Source: Spirogloea muscicola (lineage: Eukaryota > Streptophyta > Zygnematophyceae > Spirogloeales > Spirogloeaceae). From it: a DNA stretch of 50,906 nucleotides. Below, piece after piece: positions 24,067-48,559 of the stretch. The notes under the pieces were generated by a model that searched no databases, had not been told where the DNA came from, and saw only the letters and a list, made by a program, of their open reading frames with translations. Numbering within the stretch: the stretch's first letter is position 1; each line of letters starts with the position of its first letter. Made by a program: the position numbers and the translations under genes. The stretch spans positions 92,784-143,689 of the forward strand of contig WELB01000202.1 of NCBI GenBank assembly GCA_009602725.1, in the 5' to 3' direction.

Positions 24067-27000
24067 GAAGAAGAAAGTGCTCGCCCATTGAGAATAGGGG
24101 CTGGAACAACCAGCCCGAAAAAGAATGAACAGAGTACGAGAAGGGGGCCAGGGGAAGCGCTAAGTAACAGAAACAAAGCTGCTACGAGACACTCAGTAAC
24201 CCCTGCTAAGCAGCCGCAGATCAGAGATGCTGGGCTCCTGGAAGTGGGTCCCCTGGCCAGAGCCAGAGGCAGCAGCGAGGGCTCTGCCGGCACGAAGGTG
24301 CAGCGCCCGGGCCATGGACCTCTGCAGCGAGACGGCCAGGCGCATTCGATACACTTGCGCCAGCGACCCGGCTGCAGGGAAGTCAACCGGCTCCCCATGG
24401 AAGCGCCGGGCGATGGTGTGGCGGGCGAGCTGGGTGAGCAGCTCGAGCCACCGAGCGCCCAGCGCCCCATGTGTGTCGATGGCCAACGGGAAGAACTCGT
24501 CTTCCCGCGGATGATCCGCGTACTTCAGCTCTTTGGCCCGAGCAGCGCAGGCGACCGCATACCCAGCCGTGGTGGCACATTTGGCTGGGTGTGAGCGGTC
24601 ATAGGCATCAGTAGTCACCACGTCCAGGAGAAGACGTGGCCCGCCGGCCTGTCGGGTGGCCACCAGGTCTACACGCCTGGCATGGAGACCGTCGGCCCTG
24701 TGCTGGATTGGCATGATTCCGGAGTGCTCTGCTGCCACGGAGAAACCAGCCTCCAACAGGATGCCATGCATTACGTCGCGGAGGCGGTCGTGGGCCGCTG
24801 TCCGCTCTCCGCCGTGGGAACAGCGCAGAACATGAGCAGCCAGCTCTCCAGGCTCGGTCCCGCGCTCGCCACACTCACATTGACGCACACCCTGGAGACA
24901 TGGCGGCAGTAGGCCCAGGAGCCGGTGGACGGCACTTCGGAATACCTCGTCCGGGAGGGTGAGGGCGTCGTAGAGGGGGAGGGCCTGGAGCCACGCCGCA
25001 GCCCCCGGGGAAGAGGCCGAGTGGAGTCTCGCGCGCCCGCGCAAGTCGGCCTCGGGGAGCTGGAGCACGGCGGTGGTGTAGGCGGCCTTGTCGACCACTG
25101 CCGCGATGCGCGCTTGGACGCGCAAGTCGGCGGTGTGCGCGAGGTGCGCAAAGGATACCGCCTGGCCGGCCAGGTCCGGGTGCGCCGCGAGCAGCTCCTG
25201 GTGGGCGGAGCGAAGCGACACCTGGAACGGCAGCGGGCCCATGTCGACCTCCGCCACCGCCTGCTCCAGTGCCCGCCGGCCGTGGACCAAGAAGCGCTGG
25301 GCCACGGAGGCGGCAGTCTGCGCCCAGCTGCCGAGGTATGCCGCCCGGCAAGAACGAGCGAGCGGGCGCAGGCCGAGACCACCGTGGCTGAGGGGTAGCG
25401 CCGCCTGGTGGATAGCTGCTGGCGACTGGAGGAAGCCCTGGTGGCGGACCAGGGCCGCCAAGCTCGCCACCATGCTTGCATCGAAATCTGCATACGCTGC
25501 CAACGCCCCAGGGGACGGCGGAGTGGCCCGCGTCAGGTACTGGGGCCGCTGCCCAATGGCCCTGGTCAACATGGCCAGCGATAGTTGCATGTCGTCCAGC
25601 TCGGGAAGCCGGGCCGCAGGCTGAAGGTGCTCCGCCAGGCGGGCTCGCAGCTGCCCCTCCACGAAGGACGGCGCGCCGATGGGGACCCCCAGCAGGGTGA
25701 AGCCATCTGCTGGAGTTTGGCAGCCGGTGGGCAGCGTCAGGTTGGGTGGGAGGCCGCTGGGAGACCAGGCCGCGCACTTTGACGCCCGGGTGGACAGGCC
25801 GAGGGTGGCCAGCTGCAGCTCAAGGGTGATGAAGGCCGCCGCCACGTCTTCCGGAGGGCCGACGATGGTGGTGTCGTCCGCGAAGGAGGGGAGTAGGACT
25901 CCTGGGTGTGCCGCGGCGGTTGCCTGCAGGGCCCGGTGGTGAGCGAGCGCAAAGTAGAAGCCGGCGAGGGGGTCTCCTTGCCGCGTGCCCGCTTGGGACT
26001 GCAGGACCTCCACTTGATCTCCCCCTGTCCGCCAGAGGAGGTCGCTGGGCTGACCGTACCCCAAGCGGAAAAAGGGTACCAGGGAGGGGAAGGATGCCCG
26101 GAGCTCCTCCGCAATGCTGGCGCGCTCCACAGTGTTGAAGGCATTCTTCACGTCAACGGCCAGCACCAGCCACCCCGGGTGCTGGTCCAAGGTCGCACGA
26201 ACCCCATGGACGACGGCCTCGCCCCCACTCCGCAGCCCCGCGCCGTACTGGTGTGGCGCCATGTGCACCTGCGCCGGCCCCGCATGCTGCTGCCAGAGTA
26301 CGCGGCTCACCAGGCGGTACAGGACCTCCCCAATGGCAATGGGCCTGACTCCCCCGCTCGGCTTGTCGAGGGCGAGCAGCGTGCTGGTGCACAGTACGCC
26401 GCGGATGCTGGCCGGCACATTGTCGCGGGCCATATGCTGGCAGATCTGCAGCAGCGCGTTGAAGTCTGTTGCCTCACCCTCAAGGAAGATCTCCCGCAGG
26501 TGCTCAGTTAGCATGCGGGAGGGGCCGCCGGCGGCTGCGCGACGGCTGGTCTGGAGAGCCTTCATGAGGGCGTCGGCGTCCAAGACCACCTCCTCCGGCG
26601 GGGCGAACGCGGCCAACCACGGTGGCAGGGGGGAGCTGGACGGGGGGTGGAGGGAGTCCAGAGCCGCCCGGGTTGCCGCATTGGTCGGCGCCAGCATCGC
26701 ATCGTCCAGGGCCTGCACAGCCCGGGAGAGCTCGCCCGCGTGGCCGTAGCGAAGAGCCCTGCGGACGCTGGCGGCCCGGTCGTGTGTTGCCCCTCGACCA
26801 CCACGGTTGGCTTCGGATGCCGCCACGGCTGCGTCGTGCCTCGCCAGGAGCTCCTCCCAGTGCCCGCTCTCGAACAACTGGACGCGTTCCAAGAGGGGCT
26901 GCTGGCCCTGCTTGCGGCTGTCGAGAGAGACCCGCCCGAGCAACAGCCGGGGGAAGAGGATGAACAGCTTCCACGCCGCCTCGTCTCTGTGGTCCACGAC

Positions 27001-27640
27001 GATCCGCTGTGTCACCGGGCGGAGCGCGCGGCGGAGGTGTGGGCGTGCCCAGCGTGGAACATGGCGTAGGAGCGGCAGGGCCGCCTGGCGGTGAACTGCG
27101 GCCAGGTCAAGGTCGGCCTGCCACTGCCAGTGGTGAGGCGTGGGCGGGGACGGCGCGGGAGGCCTGCCTGGTCTGCCCCGACGACCACCCGCCGCCGCTG
27201 CGCTCCGCGCCTGCTCCGCACGGTTGATGTTGCCCGCGCAAGTTCGCTGGTGGTTGGACCGGCCGGACCGCGTGGTGAAGGTCCTCTGGCAAAGCTGGCA
27301 CCGAGGCGGGTCGGGCGAGGGAGGAGAGGGCGACGGCGGTGGAGCCGGCTCGCTCGGCGGGGGTGGAGGCGGCGGAGATGGGGGGGGCGTCGATGGCGCC
27401 GACTGTGGAAGGCTGGGCGGCTCGAGAGGCGGGATGGCGGATGATCGGGAAGGCGGCGTCGGAGGAGGTGGGGGCGGTGGGGACGTCGGCGGCTGTGGTG
27501 ACGTGGGAAGGGGCCCGGCGCAGCTGGTCGTGCGTACGAGCCGCGGCGGCGGCGGCGCGGGGGAGGGGGCCGGCAGGCGGGAGCCGGGGGGCTGGGATTG
27601 CCGGGCAAGCCCCCGTAGTGGTCAACACGTTCTCCGGCCC
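24067..27640 (-). mobile_element. LINE retrotransposon, restriction-like-endonuclease type
   Basis: The longest element copy: one long reading frame, a 126-bp 3' UTR and a terminal tail hairpin (24105..24125) ending near 24067 at AAGAAGAAAGTGC in plus sense. The 5' boundary is uncertain. Coding potential stops at 27621, and the sequence from about 27636 is a plus-orientation LINE tail, so the 5' end is either truncated or joined to older repeat DNA. I found no target-site duplication for this copy. Confidence 0.85.
24193..27621 (-). CDS. LINE polyprotein: C2H2 finger, reverse transcriptase, RLE endonuclease
   Basis: The frame is open from 27621 to the stop at 24193 (about 1142 codons). No ATG occurs near its 5' end; the first GTG is at 27015, so annotations starting there would lose about 200 residues. 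Order: a Pro/Ser/Thr-rich segment; a C2H2 finger with CQLCQRTFTTRSGRSNHQRT (about 27300..27240); a reverse transcriptase with DVKNAFNTVERASI, GTRQGDPLAGFYFAL and FADDTT (in place of YADD); then a Cys/His knuckle (CECGERG...HVLRCSHGG) and a PD-(D/E)xK-like region (RRVDLVA...LLLDVVTTD). This is the layout of R2/NeSL/CRE-type LINEs, which often target specific sites. There is no internal stop or frameshift. Catalytic activity is inferred. The C-terminus, ISDLRLLSRGY, recurs in many fragments nearby. Confidence 0.88.
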   Translation of the reverse strand, partial: PLRGLARQSQPPGSRLPAPSPAPPPPRLVRTTSCAGPLPTSPQPPTSPPPPPPPTPPSRSSAIPPLEPPSLPQSAPSTPPPSPPPPPPPSEPAPPPSPSPPSPDPPRCQLCQRTFTTRSGRSNHQRTCAGNINRAEQARSAAAAGGRRGRPGRPPAPSPPTPHHWQWQADLDLAAVHRQAALPLLRHVPRWARPHLRRALRPVTQRIVVDHRDEAAWKLFILFPRLLLGRVSLDSRKQGQQPLLERVQLFESGHWEELLARHDAAVAASEANRGGRGATHDRAASVRRALRYGHAGELSRAVQALDDAMLAPTNAATRAALDSLHPPSSSPLPPWLAAFAPPEEVVLDADALMKALQTSRRAAAGGPSRMLTEHLREIFLEGEATDFNALLQICQHMARDNVPASIRGVLCTSTLLALDKPSGGVRPIAIGEVLYRLVSRVLWQQHAGPAQVHMAPHQYGAGLRSGGEAVVHGVRATLDQHPGWLVLAVDVKNAFNTVERASIAEELRASFPSLVPFFRLGYGQPSDLLWRTGGDQVEVLQSQAGTRQGDPLAGFYFALAHHRALQATAAAHPGVLLPSFADDTTIVGPPEDVAAAFITLELQLATLGLSTRASKCAAWSPSGLPPNLTLPTGCQTPADGFTLLGVPIGAPSFVEGQLRARLAEHLQPAARLPELDDMQLSLAMLTRAIGQRPQYLTRATPPSPGALAAYADFDASMVASLAALVRHQGFLQSPAAIHQAALPLSHGGLGLRPLARSCRAAYLGSWAQTAASVAQRFLVHGRRALEQAVAEVDMGPLPFQVSLRSAHQELLAAHPDLAGQAVSFAHLAHTADLRVQARIAAVVDKAAYTTAVLQLPEADLRGRARLHSASSPGAAAWLQALPLYDALTLPDEVFRSAVHRLLGLLPPCLQGVRQCECGERGTEPGELAAHVLRCSHGGERTAAHDRLRDVMHGILLEAGFSVAAEHSGIMPIQHRADGLHARRVDLVATRQAGGPRLLLDVVTTDAYDRSHPAKCATTAGYAVACAARAKELKYADHPREDEFFPLAIDTHGALGARWLELLTQLARHTIARRFHGEPVDFPAAGSLAQVYRMRLAVSLQRSMARALHLRAGRALAAASGSGQGTHFQEPSISDLRLLSRGY

Positions 27641-28230
27641 CTCTAGACATTGTCCATTCTTTTTGGGCTGGCTTTGTGGGCGAGCACCTACTTCTAGACC
27701 ACGCTGTGGGCTGGCATCTCAACAGCCTCGCCCCCTGCGAAAGAGCTGCTACTTGTGGACCTGGCTCATTTTTTTGTGGGCTGGCTTTTACCCTGCAAAG
27801 AGCCTAGTTCTCTGCTCAGACCTCGTTCTTCCCTTTGGGCTGGCCTCTCACAGCCATTGCTGTGCATCGGAAGGACTCTTCCTCTCTTTCTTTTGGGCTG
27901 GCCTCTCACTTAGCACTTAGTCCCCTGCTTTCTGCGCCATTCGGCTCTTCTTGACCTTGTCCATTCCTTTTGGGCTGGCTTCTCCCAGCCACCAGTCAAT
28001 TCGGCCGCGCTTTTCTCACACAGGAGAGCCACTTTCCTTTTTTCCTCACAGCCATCGCCCTCTACTGGAAGACTCTAATCTCTCTTACAGGCACTGCCTT
28101 ACATTGCATAAGCTGTTATTTTCTTCTATAAAACCCTGTTCATTCAGTTGGGCCTTTGGACCTTGTCATTTTCCCTGAGCGGGCTTTTCACAGCCGTCGC
28201 CCCCCTGGGAAGAGCCCTTTTCTTTCGCAG
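27640..28230 (+). repeat. Array of plus-orientation LINE tail segments
   Basis: About six partial tails in a row, each starting with T-rich sequence and GGGCTGG, for example near 27657, 27705, 27775, 27835, 27893 and 27970. Spacing is irregular (roughly 50-80 bp) and most are diverged. They point away from the minus-strand LINE. A segment at 27990..28016 matches 23972..23998 perfectly in inverted orientation. Confidence 0.7.
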
Positions 28231-32114: not shown

Positions 32115-34206
32115 CTAATCTAGCTGGAGGATTGCAGCCTGCACATGGAGAGCATGCTCCACCTCGGCCCAATCTTTCACCCGCCCAATGAGTGGATGCT
32201 GCGGACCACACTCTGTCTTGCTCCACGCATAATCGAGGTTCCAGTCAAAGAGGAGGGCTCGGATGCCATGCTCGGCACACTCCACGGCATACCTTGGATT
32301 GTCATCAATAATTACGTCGATCCCAAGGGACCTGTTTGAAGAAGCCAGAGAGTTGAAAGCATGAGCATGAGCCATCTTGTCACATGAGCCATCTTGTCAC
32401 AATCCTGCTCGGAAACACTTAGACTATAATGCTCACTCCCACAAGATCCAACAATTGTCTAACGAGAAGCTGGTTACGACGAATATCTTGTTGTGAATGA
32501 CAATGACACCAAGTCTCACTGCACTGGGCAGCATTGAGGCTTTGGTGTTGCTATGGCCAAGTGCGCACTTCATTGAGCAATAGGTAAGCGGAGGACTTAC
32601 TTGCAAATCTCTGACTTAGGCCTTGCCACACCCTCCAGAGCAAAGTGATTACCGAAGTGGACAGCATCAAACGTTTGGGGAAAGTGTTTATTCAACCACT
32701 CCAGGGTTGGCTGTCTGATCACGTGCTGCCTGGACCTGCCATTGAAGGAGTGGCTGGGCGTCACATCTACGCATCAGGAACCAGCTGCGCCCAAACACCT
32801 AGCGCATGATGCGCCAAGTACCTAGCTCAAATTGCAGCAACGCAGCTCTTATGACAGCATAGTGCGCACTGCTTACGTGACAACAGTCAGCTGGCAGTAG
32901 GACGACAGTCTCTGAAGCGCCTCACGCGCGCCAGGAATAGGTGGGATGCCATTGTTGAAGTGGTCCGACTCAAAGAAAGCGTGAACCCGGTGGTTGGCTG
33001 CCAATTGCAGACAGAGCTGGCGATTGGAGAGAGCAAAAGCATGCAGTGCAGATAGTTGCTTTGCAGAGCAAGACAGTCAAAGTTGGTCGTTGAAAGAGAG
33101 CTGTCTTTCGTTATAGCTGTCATTGGCTTACAAAAGCCAAGGCAGCTCAACAGGACTTACCCTCCGCTTGAGTGCAGTCCCATATCTGGCAGGCCAGGCC
33201 AAGTGACAACAGGTAAGCCAGACGATTTGAGCATCAAGGAATGGTTCTAGACACGGAACTTGCCTTTTGACTAACAACAGGGAGAGCTCAGATCAAGGTG
33301 TATAAGCTGAGAACAACTTGCACAACCCGAATCTACGATGCAAATGCAAGAGAAAATTGCCAGAAGAGCATCGCGAGGCCAAAGTATTTCACTTGAGGGG
33401 CTCTTCAAGAAATCCAAGGGTCAATGACAGAAGGACCTAGCTGTTTGTAGCTCACACAAACGCACAAACCTCTCACCTTCATAAAATCGTAAACATGGAA
33501 CTCCGACAGGTCATGCTTGACGTTGTACGCCTCAGCGGTGAATGCATTCAACGTCGACAGGAAGCTCCCAAGCACTGCCATCGCGCCACAGCCCACCGAG
33601 AGCAGTCAAAACCCCTGACAGATACTGGCCAGCTGGGCTTCGGGCACACCATCCATCGCGCTGGACTGGGCACTTGCACACAGGTAGGTACACAGCTCAC
33701 GGCACGGTGACAGCGGAGGCCAGTCGTGCTGCCGCACCTTCGTCAACGTCCACGGCGACGTGCAGCTTCCGCGCGGCAGCCGGTTGGTGTCCCAGGCGGG
33801 ACACCGCGGCGGACAGGAGCTCGCCGGTCGCGGCGGCCGCGGCATCGGCGGCCTCGCCGGCGCCGTGCGAGGGGGCGGACGCCGGCGTGTCGNNNNNNNN
33901 NNNNNNNNNNNNNNNNNNNNNNNNNNNNNNNNNNNNNNNNNNNNNNNNNNNNNNNNNNNNNNNNNNNNNNNNNNNNNNNNNNNNNNNNNNNNNNNNNNNN
34001 NNNNNNNNNNNNNNNNNNNNNNNNNNNNNNNNNNNNNNNNNNNNNNNNNNNNNNNNNNNNNNNNNNNNNNNNNNNNNNNNNNNNNNNNNNGACGCCGGCG
34101 TGTCGGGGCGGGCCGTGAAGGACGACGGCGCCGGCGCGGGGGGCGCCAGGCGCTCGGTGTCGGCGCGCCTCGCAATGGCGACGGCGGCGCAGAGAGGCTC
34201 GAGTCG
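32115..34206 (-). CDS. HAD-superfamily hydrolase, NT5C-like
   Basis: Exons: first exon ending at 33738, then 33574..33477, 33016..32877, 32735..32601 and 32331..32115, all in phase. HAD motif I is LHVAVDVDEVLG (D-x-D) at the first junction. Then come FLSTLNAFTAEAYNV and SEFHVYDFMK, FFESDHFNNGIPPIPGAREA, LQRLSSYCQLTVVTSRQHVI (motif II, Thr/Ser), AVHFGNHFALEGVARPKSEI CK (motif III Lys), and IDVIIDDNPRYAVECAEHGI (motif IV acidic pair) with LLFDWN. The cap and motif order resemble cytosolic 5'(3')-deoxyribonucleotidase (NT5C) and its plant relatives, so a small phosphomonoesterase is likely; the substrate is not known. Upstream of the first motif the frame is Ala/Pro-rich and interrupted by the N gap, so the true start and length are unknown. 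A transit peptide there is possible. Confidence 0.82.
33893..34090. other. Assembly gap (198 N) inside the first HAD exon
   Basis: A run of N flanked on both sides by the same 15 bases, GACGCCGGCGTGTCG (33878..33892 and 34091..34105). The frame before and after the gap encodes the same short peptide (DTPAS). Confidence 0.95.
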
Positions 34207-34388
34207 TGGTGCTGGGACTGAGCCGACGACCCGGCCGCGGCGGCCGTCGCCGCTGCTGCGGCGAGCCGCGAATGCCGCGGCAGCGGGCCGCCGCCGCCGG
34301 CGCCGTCGCCGCCGCCGGCGTCGGGAGGGCGGGAGCGGCGGGAGTTGGTCAGCTGGGCCGCTTGGCGGCCAAGGTGACAGTGTGACGT

Positions 34389-34830
34389 TTAGTACCCACG
34401 GTTGAGCACATACAAATTCAAGTCTTTTGTAACCGAGGAGGCGGGCTGGCCCCCCCGTCTCGGAGCGACGCCGGGGTCGTTGTCAAGGCGCCTTCTCGAC
34501 GGGGCCGGTGGCGGCAGTGGCCAGCAACGGGCGGGCGAGCGACGCCAGGCGGGCGGCCGCAGAGGCGGCTTCTGGCGGCCCGAGAAGAAATTCGTGTATT
34601 TGATACAAACGAAGGCCAAATGGCCAAGAGGAGAAGTGGCCCTCCCAATGGGGCAAAGGGCTGCGAAAAGCCAGCCCAAAAAGAATTGATATAGGTTCGG
34701 AGGGGCCTACATGCGTGTAGCAGCCACAACGAGAAGGCGCGGGGTGCGTGCGCATGGAATGAAAGGGAGGCTGATTCAGGCCATAACATCATTCTCCGTC
34801 ATTTTGGCCCCCTCGAACCTATCTCGGGCT
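34389..34830 (-). repeat. Composite of SINE-like and LINE tail repeats
   Basis: At 34389..34410 the minus strand reads a LINE-like end (LNRGY, stop). 34595..34628 carries a 34-bp block shared with 35484..35517 (one mismatch). A minus-orientation LINE tail lies at 34645..34690 (GGGCTGCGAAAAGCCAGCCC), followed by the SINE-like block at 34720..34775 (GGCGCGGGGTGCGTGCGCAT). The order tail, spacer, GGCCCC, SINE-like block is the reverse complement of 36166..36290. Confidence 0.6.
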
Positions 34831-42329: not shown

Positions 42330-42552
42330 TCTGCATGTCACCGCGCCTCTGGCTCTGGCCAGGGGACCCACTTCCAGGAGCCCAGCATCTCTGATCTGCG
42401 GCTGCTTAGCAGGGGTTACTGAGTGTCTCGTAGCAGCTTTGTTTCTGTTACTTAGCGCTTCCCCTGGCCCCCTTCTCGTACTCTGTTCATTCTTTTTCGG
42501 GCTGGTTGTTCCAGCCCCTATTCTCAATGGGCGAGCACTTTCTTCTGCATGT
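42330..42552 (+). mobile_element. Recent 5'-truncated LINE insertion with target-site duplication
   Basis: The insert (about 42339..42543) carries the last 24 or so LINE codons (ASGSGQGTHFQEPSISDLRL, LSRGY, stop at 42420..42422), the full 3' UTR and the hairpin GGGCTGGTTGTTCCAGCCCC. Read by eye, from the CCTCTGGC near 42346 to the end it matches the reverse complement of 24067..24277 with no difference that I found. Direct repeats TCTGCATGT flank it (42330..42338 and 42544..42552). Six bases (CACCGC) at the 5' junction are not in the parent. It is a dead-on-arrival copy of the long element's subfamily. Confidence 0.88.
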
Positions 42553-48170: not shown

Positions 48171-48200
48171 CCCCCATCATGTCGCAGCGGCGGGCCCGCA

Positions 48201-48496
48201 GGAGTGGGAGGCAGCAGCAGTGGAAGGAGGTATAGCGGGTGGGGAAAGGACGGCCTGACGTGCCACAGAGCTAGGGGTGCCGTGCTGACAGGGGCCGTGT
48301 CGACTCGTGGGCTGGCTTTGCCAGCCCCTCTTCTCTATGGACGAGCAATTCTCTCCACTCGACCTGCACCGCTTCTGGAGCTGCTCGAGGAGTGGGAGGC
48401 AGCAGCAGTGGCTAGAGCGATGGCGGGTGGGGGAGAGGGGTGCCGGAGGTGCCACAGAGGGGGGGGAGCCGTGCTGACAGGAGCCATGTCGACTCG
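48201..48496. repeat. Diverged direct duplication (about 107 bp units)
   Basis: 48201..48307 and 48389..48496 share GGAGTGGGAGGCAGCAGCAG, GGTGCCACAGAG and CCGTGCTGACAGG, and end in GTCGACTCG. A 22-bp segment after each unit is identical (48364..48385 and 48499..48520). The first unit is separated from its 22-bp neighbour by an inserted LINE tail. Confidence 0.75.
48303..48361 (+). mobile_element. 49-bp LINE-tail micro-insertion with 5-bp target-site duplication
   Basis: Insert 48308..48356 starts TGGGCTGGCTTTGCCAGCCC, the tail hairpin with an 8-bp stem, and ends GACGAGCAATTCTCTCC, the LINE 3' end. ACTCG flanks it on both sides (48303..48307 and 48357..48361). The duplicate copy has a single ACTCG at 48492..48496, with the same left and right neighbours and no insert: the empty site. 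Confidence 0.75.
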
Positions 48497-48559
48497 AACT
48501 GCACCGCTTCTGGAGCTGCTAGGGGACCCAGAGCTCCATAGCCCGCCCCCGTAAGAAGC

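What the first reader, a model, noticed from the sequence alone, without database searches (positions are those of the whole stretch)
48303..48496. A 49-bp retro-insertion made of little more than a LINE tail hairpin, with its empty site nearby
48308..48356 is a clean LINE 3' tail (8-bp stem hairpin plus CGAGCA...TCTCC end) bounded by ACTCG direct repeats. The neighbouring duplicate unit carries the same flanks with one ACTCG and no insert (48492..48496). The duplicated DNA thus acts as a built-in before/after comparison, showing that extremely short tail-only pieces can integrate with a target-site duplication. That would explain the solo tails spread through the window.
Basis: partly seen in the sequence, partly recalled or inferred. 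Interest (0 to 1): 0.78.

Follow-up and report, generated by a model that had tools for sequence, protein, structure and literature searches.

The report
Tiny 49-base LINE retrotransposon insertion
A 49-base scrap from the very end of a mobile element (a LINE) was pasted into one copy of a repeated unit and duplicated five bases of its target; it is a clean but ordinary example of a genome in which this element often inserts only scraps.

Summary
48308-48356 is a 49-base LINE 3' tail between two ACTCG copies; the neighbouring unit aligns with one 54-base gap, 49 plus one ACTCG. That 'duplicate' is a unit of a 135-base tandem repeat; of 57 junctions read on 13 contigs only the window's holds the insert, so empty is the older state. 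The tail belongs to an abundant non-LTR retrotransposon: 3419 core matches, reversed control 0. In 60 copies picked by the core alone, 5' ends are spread along the 3'UTR, median insert about 110 bases, 6 of 60 tail-only, no pile-up at the hairpin. Direct repeats of 8 bases or more flank 10 of 57 copies, 0.5 expected. A second short piece (55-57 bases, 10-base duplication) has its own empty site (L079/L110). Three pieces of 24-26 bases without the hairpin sit in repeats with known empty forms, so the hairpin is not the unit of insertion. Best reading: target-primed reverse transcription that aborts early. Only 3 of 7 tails of this type in the window lack upstream 3'UTR.

The parts
48308..48356 (+). 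49-nt LINE 3' tail insertion, 5'-truncated one base before the hairpin
48309..48327 (+). tail hairpin GGGCTGGC-TTT-GCCAGCCC
48303..48307 (+). 5' copy of target-site duplication ACTCG
48357..48361 (+). 3' copy of target-site duplication ACTCG
48200..48387 (+). filled copy of the tandem-repeat unit (135-bp period elsewhere in the genome)
48388..48526 (+). neighbouring empty copy of the unit
48492..48496 (+). single ACTCG of the empty site
24193..27621 (-). open frame of a sister LINE: reverse transcriptase, and a weak N-terminal C2H2-finger match below the curated cut-off; the kind of machinery that would make the insertion
24070..24192 (-). 3'UTR and tail of that sister LINE (GGGCTGGTTGTTCCAGCCCC...GGGCGAGCACTTTCTTC)

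Best explanation
The 49 bases are a severely 5'-truncated copy of a non-LTR retrotransposon (LINE) with an R2-like reverse transcriptase. Its protein nicked the target at or beside ACTCG, primed on the pyrimidine-rich RNA 3' end, copied only 49 nt of cDNA through the terminal hairpin, and then stopped. The staggered second nick and repair produced a 5-bp duplication. Shown here: the insert, its boundaries, the duplication, the older empty state, the family's 3'UTR joined to a LINE coding end, and the size continuum. Inferred: the TPRT steps and the early abort.
For: Single 54-nt gap against the neighbouring unit. Insert absent in 56 of 57 junctions read, on 13 contigs (55 by the strict pattern, 1 variant ACTCAAC). 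Longer copies run from the same tail through a 3'UTR into a coding end homologous to the window LINE's C terminus (8 of 8 long copies chosen for this). That LINE has RVT_1, and its 3 matches among solved structures are all R2 proteins (best E 4.7e-7). 60 copies chosen by core only: 5' ends occur all along, 6 of 60 tail-only. Repeats of 8 bp or more at 10 of 57 against 0.52 expected from mispaired flanks; for the 8 shortest, 3 against 0.02. Independent empty site for L079 with a 10-bp duplication.
Against: A 5-bp repeat alone is weak when flanks are scanned freely (29 of 57 copies have 5 bp or more, but 13.1 are expected by chance); the case rests on the empty site. Four of the 8 shortest copies show no repeat of 6 bp or more, and tail-only L010 shows no clear one. 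19 of the 57 junctions lie in one array, so they are not all independent. Pattern searches count copies only approximately. No other strain was available, so the event was not seen directly.
Confidence: 0.88

Rival explanations
1. The insert is old and the neighbouring unit lost it by exact deletion between the two ACTCG copies.
For: An exact deletion between short direct repeats would leave the same single ACTCG (general knowledge).
Against: 56 of 57 junctions read on 13 contigs lack the insert; they or their ancestors would have to have lost it. Even so, the insertion with duplication would still have happened.
Confidence: 0.04
2. A dedicated tail-only RNA (a minimal SINE-like RNA beginning at the hairpin) is the template, rather than an aborted copy of a long LINE RNA.
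For: Several copies begin within 14 nt of the core (6 of 60).
Against: No excess of ends there: 0.0067 per nt for 0-15 nt against 0.0037 and 0.0157 for the next two bins. One exact match has three non-T letters before NTGGGC against 514 with TTT, although that pattern would catch only about four in ten random flanks. Starts are scattered.
Confidence: 0.06
3. The hairpin is the tip of a DNA element (Helitron end or MITE) and not a LINE tail.
For: GC-rich hairpin near an end.
Against: Longer copies lead into the coding end of a reverse-transcriptase LINE; 29 nt follow the hairpin to the end of the insert; the 5' end varies while the 3' end varies little.
Confidence: 0.02

Closest known systems
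5'-truncated LINE copies made by target-primed reverse transcription
   Same: Nearly fixed 3' end, variable 5' end, short target duplications, a 3' hairpin in the tail, LINE coding end upstream in longer copies.
   Different: Typical truncated members are given as 100-1,000 bp (passage of PMC3747384); here the median is about 110 and pieces of 24-57 nt occur.
R2-type (restriction-like-endonuclease) non-LTR retrotransposons
   Same: Reverse transcriptase most like R2 proteins among solved structures, a weak N-terminal C2H2-finger match.
   Different: No single target site is apparent: flanks differ among copies; the endonuclease domain could not be confirmed.
Stringent LINE/SINE pairs sharing a 3' stem-loop
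   Same: A terminal stem-loop in the 3'UTR; passages of PMC3747384 and the start of the abstract of PMC5135761 (search listing) describe its recognition by the reverse transcriptase.
   Different: The pieces here have no SINE head; recognition was not tested.

Membership tests
5'-truncated non-LTR retrotransposon copy | 3' end shared with a longer element that encodes reverse transcriptase | tested here: met
   3'UTR upstream of the tail joins a coding end homologous to the window LINE frame (8 of 8 chosen long copies), which has RVT_1; the reverse transcriptase of the exact tail family itself was not read
5'-truncated non-LTR retrotransposon copy | nearly constant 3' end, variable 5' end across copies | tested here: met
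5'-truncated non-LTR retrotransposon copy | target-site duplication at the insertion | tested here: met
   5 bp at the window copy against its empty site; family excess over mispaired flanks
5'-truncated non-LTR retrotransposon copy | priming on nicked target DNA | not testable with these tools
   needs biochemistry
R2/NeSL/HERO-type LINE with restriction-like endonuclease | reverse transcriptase of that lineage | tested here: inconclusive
   its 3 solved-structure matches are R2 proteins; no tree was built
R2/NeSL/HERO-type LINE with restriction-like endonuclease | C-terminal restriction-like endonuclease domain | tested here: inconclusive
   no Pfam or PDB sequence match for the C-terminal 303 aa at E up to 1; single-sequence fold model pLDDT 35.6
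SINE | a head of its own (small-RNA-derived) before the LINE tail | tested here: not met
   the insert begins one base before the hairpin; nothing else lies between it and the target copy

The most novel reading that the evidence does not exclude
In this genome a LINE completes integration, with target duplication, after copying as little as about 24-26 nt of its RNA end, so that many 25-60-nt insertions, shorter than usual repeat-annotation limits and partly without the terminal hairpin, may be hidden LINE events. L132 (26 nt, 12-bp duplication with one mismatch), L151 (24 nt, CTCAA) and L167 (25 nt, CAT) would be such micro-insertions.
Probability: 0.4. Interest if true: 0.55.

Novelty: new member of a known kind. 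Interest (0 to 1): 0.38.

Why it matters
Second-strand capture after so short a first strand bears on how far reverse transcription must go before a LINE insertion is completed. The genome offers a young sister family (20 of 130 scored relatives, the window's included, are full identical matches over 303 aa), nested insertions with paralogous empty sites, and a size continuum, so the minimal cDNA length could be measured. It also warns that insertions of 25-60 bp may go uncounted in repeat annotation (inference).

Tried and rejected
Tail-only pile-up at the hairpin: not seen.

Hairpin as a requirement: doubtful. A pattern for tails lacking the hairpin gave 63 matches against 894 with CCAG in place; a pattern lacking only the 5' arm gave 8, an upstream comparison pattern 10; their denominators were not searched, so no rates are claimed from them. 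60 of the 63 were fetched (the last 3 were left out to save calls); 8 were dropped as near-duplicates, leaving 52, which a rough automatic sort put as 16 tail-on-tail, 13 indel remnants, 5 after a shared ACACGAA sequence, 3 onto another tail, 15 other flanks. The labels are loose: L132 fell among the ACACGAA five and L167 among the indel remnants. Repeat lengths exceed mispaired controls only a little (all 52: mean 4.65 against 4.18; the 15: 4.8 against 3.81). Only L132, L151 and L167 have convincing empty forms. L151 and L167 lie inside tails of sister LINEs, so template switching between tails is a live alternative for them.

Automatic empty-site pairing: 43 of 147 copies had a spanning hit, but many overlaps are negative, or come from duplicated copies that hold the same insert (overlap -12), or look like chance matches. 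Only the cases read by eye are used. One search, the first try, returned no rows; an unsupported gap-penalty setting is suspected but was not checked.

Tail-only L010 lies in sequence resembling the LINE coding frame and shows no clear duplication.

Endonuclease domain: sequence searches gave nothing, and the fold model was of too low confidence to search.

Literature: the listings of searches (at most 12 titles each, some capped) show no title or abstract start on 24-60-nt LINE insertions with duplications; passages were read in PMC2718515, PMC4640811 and PMC3747384, no paper whole. That it is absent from print is not claimed.

Full report
What is there. Reading the window gives ACTCG (48303-48307), a 49-base insert (48308-48356), and ACTCG again (48357-48361). 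The neighbouring unit has one ACTCG (48492-48496). A global alignment of the two units has a single long gap of 54 bases, exactly the insert plus one ACTCG; without it the flanks align straight through, with one 1-base gap. The insert starts with T, then the exact hairpin GGGCTGGC-TTT-GCCAGCCC, and ends TTCTCTCC; its RNA fold energy is -19.6 kcal/mol.

The empty site. The neighbouring unit is one member of a 135-bp tandem repeat with 147 matches in the genome. In the 20 loci cut out, 57 distinct junctions on 13 contigs could be read: 55 are empty by a strict pattern, one is empty with a variant (ACTCAAC), and one, the window's, is filled. 19 of the 57 lie in one array on contig C218, so they are not all independent. 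The empty state is therefore taken as the older one. On C218 one frame stays open for 708 codons with a 45-aa repeat, so the window's units may be a fragment of a repeat-protein gene.

The family. A 43-nt tail pattern matches 33 places (reversed control 0) and a 34-nt core, up to 3 mismatches, 3419 places (control 0); the tool warns that counts of repeats are approximate. Longer copies carry a common 3'UTR. In 8 of 8 long copies chosen for this, the 3'UTR follows a coding end homologous to the C terminus of the window's LINE frame 24193-27621, two of them with a frame shift. That frame has a reverse-transcriptase domain, and its 3 matches among solved structures are R2 retrotransposon proteins. 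The window LINE's own tail is a sister version (GGGCTGGTTGTTCCAGCCCC). Of 130 scored relatives of its last 303 residues, 20, the window's included, score as full identical matches, so that family is young. The reverse transcriptase of the exact tail family was not read.

Size of insertions. The first 60 exact core matches listed (contigs C1 to C12) were fetched without regard to flanks. The distance from the core to the 5' end, judged by the third-best match to other copies, is at most 14 nt in 6 of 60 and at most 77 in 33 of 60, with a median of 68. With the 42 bases from core to end of the window's copy this is a median insert of about 110; one search printed 115 with a slightly larger offset. 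The rate of ending per base is 0.003-0.016 along the 3'UTR, with no peak next to the hairpin (0.0067 for the first 15 bases). So tail-only pieces are the short end of a continuum.

Duplications. With flanks scanned in a fixed range, repeats of 8 bp or more flank 10 of 57 copies against 0.52 expected when 5' and 3' flanks of different copies are paired; of 6 bp or more, 20 against 4.6; of 5 bp or more, 29 against 13.1 (3 of the 60 were dropped because their 5' end lay too far upstream). Among the 8 shortest, 3 have 8 bp or more (expected 0.02) and 4 have 6 or more; the other 4 have 5 or fewer. A wider scan that adds copies picked for likeness to the window's tail gave the same direction (11 of 87 at 8 bp or more against about 1.6% in mispaired controls). 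The repeats are a family trait, but not in every copy.

Other cases with empty sites. L079 (contig C7) is a tail with 17 more bases; its insert is 55-57 bases depending on how the repeat is assigned. L110, 97% and 94% alike on the two sides, has the empty site, and the duplication is CTCCCAGGGG. Three shorter pieces without the hairpin sit in repeats whose empty forms are known: L132 (26 bases, TTTTAAGCAGCC/TTTTAAGCAACC; 25 loose matches to the empty form in the fetched DNA, L132's own left side probably among them), L151 (24 bases, CTCAA; 17 exact empty forms) and L167 (25 bases, CAT; 21 exact empty forms) (overlapping loci were not removed from these counts). They were found with a pattern that fixes where they start, so their common start means nothing. 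By a rough sort, 37 of 52 hairpin-less matches fall in classes other than insertion into unrelated flanks. Template switching could explain L151 and L167, which lie in sister tails.

The window's other tails. Of 7 tails of this type found in the window, judged by eye, 4 continue upstream into 3'UTR (36130, 42511, 24079, 23414) and 3 do not (48321, 35607, 40560). Seven matches to two other tail types (4 and 3) were not judged.

Mechanism. The plain reading is target-primed reverse transcription from the RNA 3' end that stops early, followed by second-strand completion with a small stagger. The steps are inferred from the anatomy. A review passage gives 100-1,000 bp for truncated LINE members and describes stem-loops in stringent LINEs (PMC3747384, passages); target duplications of 2-14 bp at R1 insertions outside 28S are described in PMC2718515 (passages). 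The endonuclease type could not be settled; an R2-like lineage is suggested only.

Verdict. The case is a good specimen of a known kind; the 24-26-base pieces are the part worth more work. The organism was not identified; a green alga is my guess from the sequence alone and was not tested.

Noticed in passing
L104 (G000:C218) and window 48200-48526: The 135-bp unit is an open 45-aa tandem repeat (708 codons in one frame on C218), so it may be a repeat-protein gene with a degenerate copy in the window.
   Followed up: partly
window 27580-28020, + strand: Several pieces carrying GGGCTGGC, some of them LINE-tail-like, lie in a row just upstream of the LINE frame and in the opposite orientation; on the LINE strand they would be complementary to the tail family's 3'UTR motif around TTGTCCATTCTTTTTGGGCTGGC.
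   Followed up: partly
L115, L133, L145, L157, L159, L171 and others: Tail-on-tail arrangements: a tail end of about 22-30 bp follows directly on another tail, as if reverse transcription restarted at the RNA end or a new copy landed at the end of an old one.
   Followed up: partly
L135, L144, L147, L150, L155: Copies in which 3'UTR or hairpin-arm sequence joins directly to the last 22 bases, with the rest of the hairpin skipped; template jumps are one possible cause.
   Followed up: no
window 42401-42545 and 24070-24214 (-): A second copy of the sister LINE's 3'UTR, identical over the 110 bases printed upstream of the tail.
   Followed up: no
window 33542-34405: Unknown letters (shown as X in the translations) inside several mechanical open frames.
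   Followed up: no
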